This document shows, piece after piece, positions 20,334-25,028 of a stretch of 47,982 bases of DNA. Each line of letters opens with the position of its first letter. Position 1 is the first letter of the stretch. Position numbers and translations under genes: made by a program. This DNA is from Bacilli bacterium (lineage in GTDB: Bacteria; Bacillota_I; Bacilli_A; RFN20; CAG-826): positions 1 to 47,982 of the forward strand of contig JAFSPN010000066.1 of the NCBI GenBank assembly GCA_017442875.1, in the 5' to 3' direction. Under the pieces are notes generated by a model that saw nothing but the letters and a program-made list of their open reading frames with translations, made no database searches and was not told the origin of the DNA.

Positions 20334-20358
20334 ATCCTCTTTATAAAAATGATTATTT

Positions 20359-20376
20359 TGATATAATTATGATATA
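20359..20376 (+). promoter_or_regulatory. extended -10 promoter and possible operator of the toxin-antitoxin pair
   Basis: TGATATAAT (TG at 20359, TATAAT at 20362-20367) is an extended -10. The sequence TGATATA recurs 11 bp later (20370-20376), giving direct repeats that overlap the promoter, the usual place for autoregulation by a Phd/YefM antitoxin. GGAGG (20379 on) serves the ATG at 20389. Confidence 0.45.
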
Positions 20377-20388
20377 TGGAGGCATATT

Positions 20389-20637
20389 ATGGCAATTATT
20401 AGACCAAGTGCAGATTTAAGAAATCATTATCAAGAAATTAGCGAAATATGCAAAACAACTAATCAGCCAGTCTACATTACAGTAAATGGCAAAGAAGACA
20501 CTGCCATTATCGCTAGTGATGCTTTAGATGAGCTTTATCGCACAATAAAACTTATGCAAGAAATCAACCAAGGTATTGCTGATGTGCAAAATGGTAGATT
20601 GATTTCGTTAGAAGATGCGAAAAAGAAGCTATTATGA
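20389..20637 (+). CDS. Phd/YefM-family antitoxin
   Basis: 82 residues. The N-terminal half (RPSADLRNHYQEISEICK, then QPVYITVNGKEDTAIIAS) is the Phd/YefM fold: it dimerises and binds operator DNA. The C-terminal part (from about residue 55) is a charged helix that would bind the toxin. Good GGAGG ribosome site. The stop overlaps the following ATG by four bases (ATGA at 20634-20637), so the pair is coupled, antitoxin first. Confidence in the family is high; the antitoxin role rests on the partner's N-terminal domain. Confidence 0.88.
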   Translation: MAIIRPSADLRNHYQEISEICKTTNQPVYITVNGKEDTAIIASDALDELYRTIKLMQEINQGIADVQNGRLISLEDAKKKLL

Positions 20638-21470
20638 AATATCCAATAGTTTTAACTGATAGTGCTTTTCGAGATTTAGAAGAAATTAGAAATTATATAG
20701 CAATAGATAATCCGATAAATGCTAAACATTATCTTCAAGGGATCTTTGATCGTCTAAATAGTCTTTCTTTTTTTCCTAAATTAGGTAAACGTATAGAAAA
20801 TGCCATTTTTGTGTATGCAGATTCTTTATATCTCCCAGTTATGAATCATGTTGCCATCTATCAAATAAACAAAAAAGCTAATATCATTTATGTTTTAAGA
20901 GTGTTGTCCCATTTTCAAGACTGGCACAATATTTTTAATAAAGAAAATATTTCTAAAAAAGAAATAATAGCATCAAATGACCGCATTTCTCTAATTCGCA
21001 TAAATCAAAGTATGGTCTATGACATTTGGCGGAATTCTCTCGATGAAGATAATCGCAAGTATGTTCCTGATGAAGTGTTTGAAAGTTTGCAAGAGGCTTC
21101 AGACGTCGTTGATCAGATTATTATTAATTATGAATCTCAGGATGGCCCGTTTGTTTATGCTATTTTCCGTAACAAAGACCAGATGAATATGGGCTATGTA
21201 CAAATGGTTAAAACAAAGGGTGTTTATGAAATTGGATATCATATTTATAAACCATTTACTAGAAAAAACTATGCTACTGAAGCAGTAAATATTTTTTTAG
21301 AATATCTAAAAGACAATACAGTATTAAAAGAAATATATGGTATTGCTTTAGCGGTCAATAAAGCTAGCCGTAGAGTTTTAGAAAAAACAGGCTTTAAGCT
21401 AATATATGAAGGTCTTGATATATACCAAGGTAGCAAAAGAAAGGTTGTTAAAATGGTAAAAGCAGTTTAG
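20634..21470 (+). CDS. ParE/RelE-type toxin fused to a GNAT acetyltransferase domain
   Basis: 278 residues in one uninterrupted frame. Residues 1-100 are a ParE/RelE-like toxin: VLTDSAFRDLEEIRNYIA, helix pair, then IYVLRVLSHFQDW, the usual end of ParE proteins. Residues about 118-278 resemble a RimJ/RimL-type GNAT: a motif-A-like stretch FTRKNYATEAV, and the NKASRRVLEKTGFK helix common to this group. In the acetyl-CoA loop the usual G-K-G-Y-A is R-K-N-Y-A, so a glycine is replaced by Asn; activity is uncertain. ParE toxins hit gyrase, RelE toxins cut mRNA, and separate GNAT toxins (TacT, AtaT) acetylate aminoacyl-tRNA; the fused combination is unusual. A terminator overlaps the 3' end. Confidence 0.8.
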   Translation: MKYPIVLTDSAFRDLEEIRNYIAIDNPINAKHYLQGIFDRLNSLSFFPKLGKRIENAIFVYADSLYLPVMNHVAIYQINKKANIIYVLRVLSHFQDWHNIFNKENISKKEIIASNDRISLIRINQSMVYDIWRNSLDEDNRKYVPDEVFESLQEASDVVDQIIINYESQDGPFVYAIFRNKDQMNMGYVQMVKTKGVYEIGYHIYKPFTRKNYATEAVNIFLEYLKDNTVLKEIYGIALAVNKASRRVLEKTGFKLIYEGLDIYQGSKRKVVKMVKAV

Positions 21471-21490
21471 TATTGCTGCTTTTCTTTTTA
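21458..21490 (+). terminator. terminator of the toxin-antitoxin operon
   Basis: AAAAGCAG (21458-21465) pairs with CTGCTTTT (21476-21483) around a loop holding the stop codon; a T-rich run follows. Confidence 0.7.
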
Positions 21491-21692: not shown

Positions 21693-22688
21693 ATGAAACC
21701 TACGCCTAAATTTTGTGTTCACTGTGGATCTCCAATTAAACCAGGAGAACAGTTTTGCATGCATTGTGGTGCTCAATTAGTGAAAAATCTTTATGACCAA
21801 ACACCAATTGAACCCACTGAAGTTAAGCCAACTGAAATCAAACCAACCGAAATCAAACCGACAGAAATCAAACCAACTGAAATAAAGCCGACAGAAATCA
21901 AACCTACAGAGATCGAACCGACTAAGATAGAACCAACAAACATAGAGCCTACTCCAATTGAACCAACACCTATAAAACCAGGTGTATTTAATAACAGGTT
22001 CTTCATGTTCTTTATCAGCCCAAATATTCTTATTTGGGGAATAATTGCTTTAGCATCAACAGTTTTCTTCATGTTTAGTGTGGGACTAGGCGGTTTTAAA
22101 TGGTGGAATGTATTCCCGCTTCTCATCATGTTAGGATCAATATTCGAAGTTGTCTGGGGCATTGTTAAAGCACCAGTGGAAAAGACAAACACTGATGGTT
22201 CACCAAAGAGCAAAGGCAAAATCCTTGTCGACAAGATGAAATATTTAGTGAAAGGCAATGGCCCAAAACCAACCCCAAAGAACTTAGTGGGCGGAATTGC
22301 TGGTGCTACCGCTGCGATAGCGTTATCGTTCTTTTTGCTTATTTCATTATCCATGGGCTTTAAGAACTTTATTGTTTTGGATGGATACACGTTTAAAGAT
22401 TCATTTTCCAACCAAGGTTATAATCCTGAAACAGACTACCGACTCGTGTCGTTCTATTCTGGATATAAAGCACGCGAAACAATAATTTTAAACGGAGAAG
22501 TTAAATTCCAAGTTTCTGGTTCATATTGGAGAATTGGTAATGACTGTGGTCTTAAATGCAAAACTTTAGAAAAAGGCGAATGGGGCTTTTGGGGATATGA
22601 CGAAACTTGGGGTTCCACCCTTAACTTCGAAATTAAGAGTTATAAAGAATTAAGAAGTGGAAACGTACCCTTCTACAGGACGGTCTAA
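21693..22688 (+). CDS. zinc-ribbon membrane protein with PTEIK repeat linker
   Basis: 331 residues. Starts with a four-Cys zinc ribbon (C8, C11, C22, C25). A linker of eleven five-residue units follows (PTEIK and variants, about 40-96), then about three membrane helices (around 103-160 and 203-225) and a 100-residue C-terminal part without helices, probably outside. I do not recognise the outer domain. First gene of a four-gene operon of membrane proteins; the next gene starts 2 nt after its stop. Zinc ribbon plus membrane segments is common in uncharacterised Firmicutes proteins; no function is assigned. No ribosome site is clear at the start. Confidence 0.75.
   Translation: MKPTPKFCVHCGSPIKPGEQFCMHCGAQLVKNLYDQTPIEPTEVKPTEIKPTEIKPTEIKPTEIKPTEIKPTEIEPTKIEPTNIEPTPIEPTPIKPGVFNNRFFMFFISPNILIWGIIALASTVFFMFSVGLGGFKWWNVFPLLIMLGSIFEVVWGIVKAPVEKTNTDGSPKSKGKILVDKMKYLVKGNGPKPTPKNLVGGIAGATAAIALSFFLLISLSMGFKNFIVLDGYTFKDSFSNQGYNPETDYRLVSFYSGYKARETIILNGEVKFQVSGSYWRIGNDCGLKCKTLEKGEWGFWGYDETWGSTLNFEIKSYKELRSGNVPFYRTV
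21804..21980 (+). repeat. 15-bp in-frame tandem repeat coding PTEIK-type units
   Basis: About eleven units of 15 bp (consensus CCAACTGAAATCAAA) with drift at wobble positions and towards the 3' end. Encodes a proline-rich, alternately charged stiff linker between zinc ribbon and membrane. Unit number is likely to vary among strains. Confidence 0.85.
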
Positions 22689-22690
22689 TT

Positions 22691-23143
22691 ATGAACTTTA
22701 ATAGTGGATCTCGTTTAGTGTTTATTATATTTATTATCGCTATAGCGATACTATTAGCGTTGCTCATTGTCTTTGCGATTATTTCAAAGAAAAAGAATAA
22801 AGTGCCAGTGGTTTTAAAAGCATTAACTATTGTTGCCTCTTTAATTGTGGTTGCTGGCTGTTTTGTCTTTCCGCTTTCCTACTATGGGGATATTCCTTTA
22901 AACCTCCAATATGGCAAGTTTATTGCCTATAATTCCGATAATTATTTAAATGTTCATAGAGATAGTGTGAGCCTTCATATTGATGGAGCATCACAAGGCT
23001 TAAAAGGTACATATACATTAAGAAATGATGTTTTAGAAATTACTTATCAAGACGGCACCAAAGATAAGTTCGTCGTAAAGCATTTCGGCCGTGAACTAGT
23101 GGACGCTGAAACAAATAATAAAGCGTACGAATATAAAGGATAG
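22691..23143 (+). CDS. small two-helix membrane protein of the zinc-ribbon operon
   Basis: 150 residues. Two membrane helices (about 8-31 and 42-66) with a short basic loop (KKKNK) between them, then about 84 residues, probably outside, rich in beta-type segments (SVSLHIDG, GTYTLRNDVLEITYQDG). The outer part looks like a small lipocalin-like or DUF-type beta domain seen in Firmicutes proteins that test a default value; I do not recognise it with confidence. Between two zinc-ribbon genes with gaps of 2 and 3 nt, so one operon. It is the only member without a zinc ribbon. Confidence 0.7.
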   Translation: MNFNSGSRLVFIIFIIAIAILLALLIVFAIISKKKNKVPVVLKALTIVASLIVVAGCFVFPLSYYGDIPLNLQYGKFIAYNSDNYLNVHRDSVSLHIDGASQGLKGTYTLRNDVLEITYQDGTKDKFVVKHFGRELVDAETNNKAYEYKG

Positions 23144-23146
23144 ATT

Positions 23147-24169
23147 ATGAAGTTTTGCGCGTATTGTGGTGCCAAGTTAGAAGATGATGCAAAGTTCTGC
23201 CTTTCATGTGGCGAAAAGTGCGTCGAGTTTTTAGATGAAAACGAAGAACCTTCTTTAGAAGAACCTAACTTAGAAGAAGAAAATAAAGCCCAAGAAGAGG
23301 CTGAAAGATTAGAACAAGAAAGACTAGCTGAAAAAGCTCGTTTAAAAGCGGAAGAAGAGGCTAGGCTGGAAGAGGAACGTCTCGCTAAAGAGCAAGAAGA
23401 AAGAAAAGTAAAAGAAGAAGCGGAACGCTTAGAACAAGAGCGTCTCGAACAAGAGAGGCTAGAAGCTGAGCGCCTTGAACAAGAACGCCTTGAGCAGGAA
23501 AGGTTAGAACAAGAACGCCTTGAAGCCGAACGTCTTGAGCAAGAGCGTTTAGAACAGGAGAGACTAGAGCAAGAAAGATTAGAAGCTGAACGCCTTGAAC
23601 AGGAAAAATTAGAACAAGAAAAACTTGCCAAAGAAGAAGCGGAACACCAAGAACAAGAACGCTTAGCGGAACTTCAAAAGAAAGAACAAGAAAACAAAAA
23701 GGTTTCCGAACTAGAAGAGGAAATCGCTTCGTTAAAAGCCCAGTTAGCCAAGGCTCAACAAGGACAAAAAAATGAAGTTGTTGAAGAAGGTCTACTTTTA
23801 CAAGAGCCTGAAAGAGAAGAACCGCTTTTAGATGAACCTGATGAAGAAGAGAATCTCTTAAATGAAACTCTGTTGGAAGATAAAAAGAGAAACAACTTTG
23901 TTTTACCGCTTGTGGCTTTAACTATTTCGTTAGTATCAGCGGTAGCCTACTTATTAATCAAAGACCTTTTCAATTTGAGCATCATTATCTTTGGTGTTAG
24001 TGCGACTATAGTGCTCTTCACATTGATTAGTTCTTTTGTCGTTTTAGGGAATCGTAAAATTAGCAAAAATACCAAATGGCTTTGCATCATCAACATCCTA
24101 TGTTGTATTGGTTTAATTGCCTTCTTGGTTATCACCTGGGCAGGTACATACCCAGGAGGAGGAAAATAA
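23147..24169 (+). CDS. zinc-ribbon protein with long coiled coil and C-terminal membrane helices
   Basis: 340 residues. Four-Cys zinc ribbon (C4, C7, C18, C21), acidic spacer, a charged coiled coil (about 45-205) built largely of LEQER and LEAER units, a second acidic spacer ([13 protein letters not shown]), then three membrane helices (about 249-267, 270-297, 310-332) and the tail GGGK. The regular charged coil would be a rigid rod or single alpha-helix lifting the zinc ribbon from the membrane, presumably in the cytoplasm. No enzyme motif. Its last codons carry the AGGAGGAGG that serves as ribosome site for the next gene. Confidence 0.75.
23429..23623 (+). repeat. in-frame repeat coding [10 protein letters not shown] coil
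   Basis: Thirteen 15-bp units; a 60-bp (20-residue) super-repeat of three LEQER and one LEAER is visible. Synonymous codons vary between units, so the protein pattern is selected more strongly than the DNA. Confidence 0.8.
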
Positions 24170-24170
24170 T

Positions 24171-25028
24171 ATGAAATATTGCCCAAACTGTGGAGCGCAG
24201 CTTCCAGATGAAGCACGCTTTTGCACGAGGTGTGGCGCCAAACAGCCAGATGCTGAAGCAATTCCACAATCTCAACCAGCTCAACCAGTAGCAGCTCAAC
24301 CAGTAGCAGCTCAACCAGTTAACGGACAAAAGAGTCCAAGAGAAAGATATAACGATTTAGTGAAAAACGACGAAGTGTTTAGAGAAATCGTCACAGTTCG
24401 CAGAAAGAAGTATTTGTTTGAACTCATCTTTGCGGTGGCCTTCATCTCTTGGCTTGTTTGTATGTTTGTTCCGGTCGCTTTATATAACGGCATTGACGCG
24501 ACAAGCGAAGGCGCGATGATTATGAACTCACTTGGTAAAACGTTGCCTCATAAAACATGTGCCTATGATTTAATCGCTCTTGCTGCGGCAGCGGGAAATA
24601 GATCTTTAAATCCAAGTGGTCTTACTTCAGCGTTTGCCACGATGTTTATGATTCTTGGCCCAATAATGACTGCTGTCACTATTGCCTTACCGCTTATTAA
24701 AGCATTCACTGGTAGGGGATATGTTTTAAAAACATATGAAGAAGGTAAAGTTAAACAATTAATCAAAGAAACCGTCAGTCCGTTCTGGGTAGGTGGTGCT
24801 TTTAGCTTCATTATGATTGTTCCTGCTTTAAACTTATTCTTATCCGCTAACGGCGAAAAATATGATGATGGTAAAACGTATTTATATGGCCACATTGAAG
24901 GTAACCCTTCTGGCTTTATCGCTGTCTTAGTGGTAGTCATTCTTTTGACTGGCTTATCCATAGCCGCTACCGCGGTTATTGGTAACATTCTTTCTAAGAA
25001 ACTAAAAGAATACGCCAAGAATATGTAA
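24171..25028 (+). CDS. zinc-ribbon membrane protein with QPVAA linker
   Basis: 285 residues. Four-Cys zinc ribbon (C4, C7, C18, C21), a short QPAQPVAAQPVAAQPV linker, a charged segment (SPRERYNDLVKNDEVFREIVTVRRKK), then four membrane helices (about 82-103, 158-182, 207-228, 253-278). ATG 24171 is used: it begins the zinc ribbon and has AGGAGGAGG directly upstream; a longer frame into the previous gene has no such support. Fourth and last gene of the operon, followed by a terminator. Function unknown; its membrane part does not match a transporter family I know. Confidence 0.77.
   Translation: MKYCPNCGAQLPDEARFCTRCGAKQPDAEAIPQSQPAQPVAAQPVAAQPVNGQKSPRERYNDLVKNDEVFREIVTVRRKKYLFELIFAVAFISWLVCMFVPVALYNGIDATSEGAMIMNSLGKTLPHKTCAYDLIALAAAAGNRSLNPSGLTSAFATMFMILGPIMTAVTIALPLIKAFTGRGYVLKTYEEGKVKQLIKETVSPFWVGGAFSFIMIVPALNLFLSANGEKYDDGKTYLYGHIEGNPSGFIAVLVVVILLTGLSIAATAVIGNILSKKLKEYAKNM

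What the first reader, a model, noticed from the sequence alone, without database searches (positions are those of the whole stretch)
20389..21470. Toxin-antitoxin pair whose toxin is a ParE/RelE-GNAT fusion
Seen: an 82-residue Phd/YefM protein overlaps by ATGA a 278-residue protein that joins a ParE/RelE-like domain (1-100) to a RimJ/RimL-like GNAT (about 118-278). Known: ParE/RelE toxins and GNAT toxins (TacT, AtaT) exist as separate families, the latter usually with ribbon-helix-helix antitoxins. Inferred: one antitoxin may control a two-warhead toxin, or the GNAT part may modify the toxin or an immunity target. The acetyl-CoA loop has Asn in place of a glycine, so the GNAT may be altered or non-catalytic.
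Basis: partly seen in the sequence, partly recalled or inferred. Interest (0 to 1): 0.72.

Follow-up and report, generated by a model that had tools for sequence, protein, structure and literature searches.

The report
Toxin–antitoxin whose toxin carries acetyltransferase
In a gut bacterium, a self-poisoning gene pair has its ParE-type toxin permanently joined to an acetyl-group-transferring enzyme; the same joined protein recurs in six related genera, which makes it a real and apparently undescribed toxin design, although what the added enzyme does is not yet known.

Summary
An 82-aa Phd/YefM antitoxin overlaps by ATGA a 278-aa protein made of a ParE domain (Pfam 5-97) and a RimJ/RimL/SpeG-like GNAT (fold 109-278). 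It is not an assembly error: 14 of 224 genomes of the same family (six genera) carry the full-length fusion (13 others, 54-59% identical), all 14 with the Phd gene. Both halves are under purifying selection (dN/dS about 0.13). The window copy sits between recG and plsX, which are neighbours in most congeners. Copies 90-93% identical occur in different genera, so the module probably moves. A 17-bp operator-like element over the -10 box is conserved. The ParE half resembles ParE toxins (Z 14) more than RelE/YoeB (Z 10-12). The GNAT was recruited from a common free-standing family: 68 free relatives have no Phd or ParE nearby yet keep the same conserved residues, and Phd has no extra segment for the GNAT. 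That argues against 'two warheads'. Most likely Phd neutralises ParE while the GNAT keeps its ancestral, non-toxic acetylation as cargo or regulator. Gly212 is Asn only in this copy (51 of 52 relatives have Gly). I found no published ParE-GNAT fusion. New variant of a known kind.

The parts
20360..20376 (+). operator-like element GATATAATTATGATATA (palindromic core ATAATTAT), overlapping the TATAAT -10 box
   Evidence: conserved upstream of the fusion operons while flanks diverge; 14 exact hits in 224 genomes, 13 of them before a phd gene of this family, one elsewhere; promoter-like site with TTTATA at 20340 and TATAAT ending at 20367
20378..20382 (+). ribosome-binding site GGAGG of phd
   Evidence: sequence; GAGG conserved in all copies
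20389..20637 (+). Phd/YefM antitoxin, 82 aa
   Evidence: Pfam PF02604 E 5.5e-8; present in all 14 fusion loci; 66-84% identical among fusion partners
20634..21470 (+). ParE-GNAT fusion protein, 278 aa
20646..20924 (+). ParE domain (residues 5-97)
   Evidence: Pfam PF05016 E 4.5e-15; AlphaFold pLDDT 83.7; VIA Z 14 to ParE toxins
20925..20963 (+). short flexible linker (about residues 98-110)
   Evidence: pLDDT under 60, below 50 at 101-106; free-standing GNATs start at about residue 107-111 of the fusion
20964..21467 (+). GNAT acetyltransferase domain (residues 111-278), RimJ/RimL/SpeG-like
   Evidence: Pfam PF13302 E 5.4e-18; Z 22 to RimL, MccE and 3fbu
21267..21269 (+). Asn212 codon at the otherwise invariant Gly of the acetyl-CoA loop
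   Evidence: 51 of 52 relatives have Gly
21458..21483 (+). terminator-like hairpin at the end of the operon
   Evidence: 1 found, 0.5 expected

Best explanation
It is a mobile type II toxin-antitoxin operon. Phd binds the N-terminal ParE domain and neutralises it, and represses the operon at the element over the -10 box. Free ParE poisons the cell, more likely as ParE toxins do (DNA gyrase) than by cutting mRNA. The C-terminal GNAT was recruited by in-frame fusion from a widespread free-standing acetyltransferase family that is not itself a toxin. In the family it is probably a working enzyme that keeps its ancestral amine or N-terminal acetylation, now carried on and co-regulated with an addiction module. 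Shown: architecture, conservation, antitoxin linkage, folds, recurrence, purifying selection on both halves. Inferred: toxicity, neutralisation, autorepression, gyrase as target, GNAT activity and its non-toxic role.
For: Both domains and the antitoxin score above Pfam cut-offs. 14 full-length fusions in 224 genomes, six genera, all with Phd; overlap of 4 nt wherever both ends were read. dN/dS median 0.126 (ParE) and 0.134 (GNAT). ParE half: Z 13-14 to ParE, 10-12 to RelE/YoeB. GNAT half: RimL, RimJ, MccE and SpeG folds. 68 free-standing GNAT relatives without Phd or ParE within the fetched flanks. 43 of 54 columns conserved in free-standing GNATs are kept in at least 12 of 13 fusions. Phd is 82 aa with fused ParE and also with an unfused ParE partner, so it has no extra module for the GNAT. 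The same operator-like element precedes an unfused Phd-ParE relative (L046). Congeners have recG and plsX adjacent.
Against: No toxicity, binding or acetylation data exist. Free GNATs without antitoxin could still differ in target from fused ones. If the GNAT were mere cargo, a separate gene would do as well, so 14 conserved fusions with almost no indels suggest that the physical link matters. In the window the loop Gly is Asn, so this copy may have altered catalysis. AlphaFold does not fix the relative placement of the domains (pTM 0.65).
Confidence: 0.5

Rival explanations
1. Self-regulating toxin: the GNAT acetylates Phd (for example invariant Lys22 or near-invariant Lys78) or the ParE domain, so that acetyl-CoA level or deacetylation sets how tightly the toxin is held.
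For: Physical fusion conserved in 14 copies with constant length (278-280 aa) and both halves selected. Precedent: TacT acetylates its antitoxin TacA (PMC5449658, abstract). Phd is more conserved than the toxin.
Against: The conserved residues of the GNAT are the same as in free-standing relatives that have no Phd nearby, so no substrate change is visible.
Confidence: 0.25
2. Two-warhead toxin: the GNAT is a second toxic activity (aminoacyl-tRNA or ribosomal protein acetylation), released together with ParE.
For: GNAT toxins exist (TacT, AtaT, ItaT), and RimL/RimJ-like enzymes act on ribosomal proteins; the fusion places both under one antitoxin.
Against: 68 free relatives live without Phd or ParE nearby. 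The Phd has no extra segment for a second domain. No solved TacT/AtaT-type toxin is named among the 56 sequence hits up to E 10 (absence is only weak evidence).
Confidence: 0.12
3. Decaying or accidental fusion: the GNAT half is inactive baggage or a folding/oligomerisation tail, at least in the window (Asn212).
For: Asn212 and Tyr198 depart from near-invariant residues only in this copy.
Against: 13 of 13 other fusions keep the Gly; GNAT dN/dS about 0.13; GNAT pLDDT above 90 over most of its length. The window branch itself has no close relative, so its selection could not be measured.
Confidence: 0.1

Closest known systems
ParE-type toxins of type II TA modules with Phd/YefM antitoxins (Pfam PF05016 + PF02604)
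   Same: antitoxin gene first, ATGA overlap, Phd/YefM fold, ParE fold (Z 14 to 8c24, 6x0a, 5ceg)
   Different: toxin is 278 aa with a C-terminal GNAT; the other ParE matches in 392 phylum genomes have open frames of 83-131 aa
GNAT toxins TacT/AtaT/ItaT/KacT with RHH antitoxins
   Same: an acetyltransferase domain in a type II TA operon
   Different: antitoxin is Phd, not RHH; GNAT is RimJ/RimL/SpeG-like (PF13302), joined to ParE, with free relatives lacking an antitoxin
Multidomain RelE/ParE (BECR-fold) toxins reviewed by Gerdes 2025 (PMC11980606): TA fusions, ToxM, PtuZ; also Cami1 (8phb)
   Same: a BECR toxin domain inside a larger protein
   Different: no GNAT fusion is described in the main text of that survey (acetyl occurs only in its references)
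RimL/RimJ, SpeG, MccE and 3fbu acetyltransferases
   Same: fold and family of the C-terminal half (Z 17-22; profile hit to 3fbu E 2e-19)
   Different: these are free-standing enzymes, not part of a TA toxin; residues 111-278 are only 15-20% identical to them

Membership tests
Type II TA, Phd/YefM-ParE | small antitoxin gene directly upstream of and overlapping the toxin gene | tested here: met
   ATGA overlap in the window and in the other loci where both genes were fully read; the 14th is split by a contig end with Phd on both pieces
Type II TA, Phd/YefM-ParE | antitoxin of the Phd/YefM family | tested here: met
   PF02604 32.9 bits, cut-off 29.8
Type II TA, Phd/YefM-ParE | toxin domain with ParE/RelE (BECR) fold | tested here: met
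   PF05016 56.4 bits, cut-off 23; Z 14.3 to 8c24, rmsd 1.9 over 93 residues
Type II TA, Phd/YefM-ParE | toxin of one domain (about 90-110 aa) | tested here: not met
   278 aa with a GNAT; other frames 83-131 aa
Type II TA, Phd/YefM-ParE | toxicity neutralised by the antitoxin | not testable with these tools
   needs expression experiments
Type II TA, Phd/YefM-ParE | autoregulation at an operator in the promoter | tested here: inconclusive
   conserved GATATAATTATGATATA over the -10 box; binding not shown
GNAT toxin (TacT/AtaT) TA | RHH (DUF1778-type) antitoxin | tested here: not met
   the antitoxin is Phd/YefM
GNAT toxin (TacT/AtaT) TA | GNAT closest to the TacT/AtaT subfamily | tested here: inconclusive
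   best relatives are 3fbu, SpeG, RimJ and RimL; no TacT/AtaT entry named among hits
GNAT toxin (TacT/AtaT) TA | acetylates aminoacyl-tRNA | not testable with these tools
   -
RimJ/RimL/SpeG-like GNAT (PF13302) | fold and profile match | tested here: met
   PF13302 66.5 bits, cut-off 25.4; Z 22
RimJ/RimL/SpeG-like GNAT (PF13302) | intact acetyl-CoA loop (Q/R-x-x-G-x-A) | tested here: inconclusive
   Gly to Asn in the window, intact in 13 of 13 other fusions

The most novel reading that the evidence does not exclude
A single polypeptide in which a toxin and an acetyltransferase act on each other or on the antitoxin: a ParE toxin carrying its own acetyl-CoA-dependent switch, or a true two-target toxin under one Phd antitoxin.
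Probability: 0.35. Interest if true: 0.75.

Novelty: new variant of a known kind. Interest (0 to 1): 0.52.

Why it matters
ParE/RelE toxins are among the commonest TA toxins and are nearly always single domains. A conserved, apparently mobile family in which one is fused to a housekeeping-type acetyltransferase gives a clean test of whether TA modules carry useful enzymes, or couple toxin control to acetyl-CoA. The three readings can be told apart by expressing each half with and without Phd.

Tried and rejected
Assembly error or lost stop: rejected by 13 other full-length fusions in other genomes. Re-initiation giving a separate GNAT: the in-frame ATG/GTG/TTG codons between residues 85 and 135 have no ribosome-binding site apart from one weak AGGA in L075, and M123/M127 lie beyond GNAT strand 1. 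Known defence system: no PADLOC match. Phage or plasmid origin: no tblastn match in phages or plasmids and none in IMG/VR. A single-sequence scan of GTDB contigs found nothing; the alignment-based scan worked. TacT/AtaT kinship: not seen among solved-structure hits, which is weak evidence only. One origin of the fusion: not rejected (p-AU 0.37), but one free GNAT, L079, falls inside the fusion clade with an open fork, so one origin plus one loss or a pre-fusion branch cannot be resolved. The 18-bp repeat at the linker (20928-20964) looks incidental, as other fusions have the same linker length without it.

Full report
What is there. Window 20389-20637 encodes an 82-residue Phd/YefM protein, and 20634-21470 a 278-residue protein, overlapping by ATGA. 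Pfam gives PhdYeFM (32.9 bits, cut-off 29.8) for the first. For the second it gives ParE_toxin at 5-97 (56.4 bits, cut-off 23) and Acetyltransf_3 at 137-255 (66.5 bits, cut-off 25.4). The PADLOC defence library has no match.

Is it real. A search of the same taxonomic family (224 genomes) finds 14 full-length fusions, the window's and 13 others, 54-59% identical to the window's, in six genera and with no internal stop. A Phd gene lies directly upstream in all 14; where both genes lie whole in one locus they overlap by 4 nt. In G142 the operon is cut by a contig end, and Phd pieces are found on both contigs. The record titles of 12 of these copies are uncultured gut and rumen Bacilli ('Erysipelotrichaceae', RUG/RGIG assemblies). 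In 392 genomes of the phylum, some 80 PF05016 matches have open frames of 83-131 aa; only the window's, at 290, is long. No match was found in phage, plasmid or viral-contig collections.

Selection and movement. Median dN/dS between fusion copies is 0.126 in the ParE part and 0.134 in the GNAT part. Copies from different genera are 90-93% identical (L070/G217 and L076/G150, 93%; L072/G214 and L073/G117, 92%), while copies within one genus (g18) can be 61-73% identical. This is the pattern of transfer between genera. In seven congeners recG and plsX are 87-116 bp apart; in the window about 4.8 kb stands between them, starting with this operon and continuing with four small genes, three of them with zinc ribbons. 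The module therefore sits at a variable site.

The promoter. The sequence TGATATAATTATGATATA, containing the -10 box, is kept upstream of the fusion operons whose upstream DNA could be read, while the flanks diverge; L072 and L078 have one change each in it. The exact pattern GATAYAATTATGATATA occurs 14 times in 224 genomes. Thirteen of these precede a phd gene of this family, including the unfused Phd-ParE pair of G248 (L046), and one (G176) does not. It is a good candidate for the Phd operator, but binding is inferred.

The two halves. AlphaFold models the full protein at pLDDT 85.9 with a disordered linker at 101-106, and pTM 0.65, so the mutual placement of the domains is uncertain. The ParE half alone (pLDDT 83.7, 13 sequences) matches ParE toxins best: 8c24 Z 14.3, 6x0a 14.2, 5ceg 14.2, against about 10-12 for RelE and YoeB. 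This favours a ParE-like (gyrase) mode but does not prove it; Gerdes (PMC11980606) reports that the Pfam ParE family contains mRNases too. The GNAT half matches RimL, MccE, 3fbu, RimJ and SpeG (Z 17-22), and a profile finds 3fbu at E 2e-19 and the best SpeG and RimJ-type entries below 1e-6.

Where the GNAT came from. 68 free-standing relatives (39-64% identical) were fetched from Clostridia, Treponema, Butyrivibrio, Anaeroplasma and Bacilli. None has a Phd or ParE profile hit in the flanking DNA fetched (up to 3 kb each side). In the tree of 39 of them with 13 fusions, the fusions group with four free GNATs of related Bacilli (100/100). One origin of the fusion is not rejected (p-AU 0.37) but not proven. 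Free GNATs begin at the point that corresponds to about residue 107-111, and an unfused ParE relative is 114 aa long, so the join lies at the natural ends of the two proteins. Of 54 columns conserved in the free enzymes, 43 are kept in at least 12 of 13 fusions. A like reaction is therefore likely, and free enzymes tolerated without this antitoxin are unlikely to be toxins. The Phd paired with an unfused ParE in L005 is also 82 aa, and that of L046 aligns over the same 82 columns, so the antitoxin shows no extra part for the GNAT. These points speak against the two-warhead reading.

The odd residue. Residue 212 of the acetyl-CoA loop is Asn here and Gly in 51 of 52 aligned sequences; residue 198 is also unusual (Tyr for Trp). 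Asn is the non-glycine residue best tolerated in turns (general knowledge), so loss of activity is possible but not shown, and it cannot be extended to the family.

How it probably works. Shown: a two-gene operon, a Phd antitoxin, a ParE-GNAT fusion conserved and selected in both halves, a conserved promoter element, and presence at a variable site. Inferred: Phd neutralises ParE and represses the operon; ParE is the toxic part; the GNAT is an active acetyltransferase with its ancestral substrate, carried by or feeding into the module. Self-regulation by acetylation of Phd or ParE is the main rival, with TacT-TacA as precedent (PMC5449658, abstract).

What is known. Makarova et al. 2009 (PMC2701414) list RelE with Xre, RHH and Phd antitoxins and GNAT with RHH and Xre; the passages read name no RelE-GNAT fusion. 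Gerdes 2025 surveys multidomain RelE/ParE toxins and does not mention acetyltransferase fusions in the main text; its supplements could not be read, and it states that small families were left out. Literature coverage is limited to open-licence papers. I therefore call this a new variant of a known kind, with moderate interest.

Noticed in passing
L224, L227, L228, L230, L231, L232 (loci around fusions in G022, G217, G214, G103, G211, G150): In 6 of the 12 fetched fusion neighbourhoods the phd-fusion operon lies in or beside tandem arrays of small ORFs with a Nif11-like leader and a zinc ribbon (up to 12 copies), nearly all in the operon's orientation. Their role is unknown.
   Followed up: partly
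L220:16548-17197 (G000 contig 44): The same genome has an ordinary unfused Phd-ParE pair (102-aa ParE), next to a flotillin-like gene. In G217 a free GNAT of the fusion clade (L048:1540-2088) lies directly downstream of a flotillin-like gene, so this may be a shared insertion site.
   Followed up: partly
window 21693-25028: Four consecutive ORFs between the TA operon and plsX; three carry N-terminal zinc ribbons and have low-complexity tandem repeats (15-bp units at 21811-21923, 23426-23574 and 24277-24319).
   Followed up: partly
window 20389-21470 and homologues: The antitoxin (66-84% identical to the window's among fusion partners) is more conserved than the ParE toxin domain (49-57%), the reverse of what I would expect of TA pairs.
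   Followed up: no
L100:3550-3795 and L132:3550-3795: An 82-aa possible RHH antitoxin-like ORF lies just downstream of two free-standing GNATs in Treponema; judged by eye, not tested.
   Followed up: no
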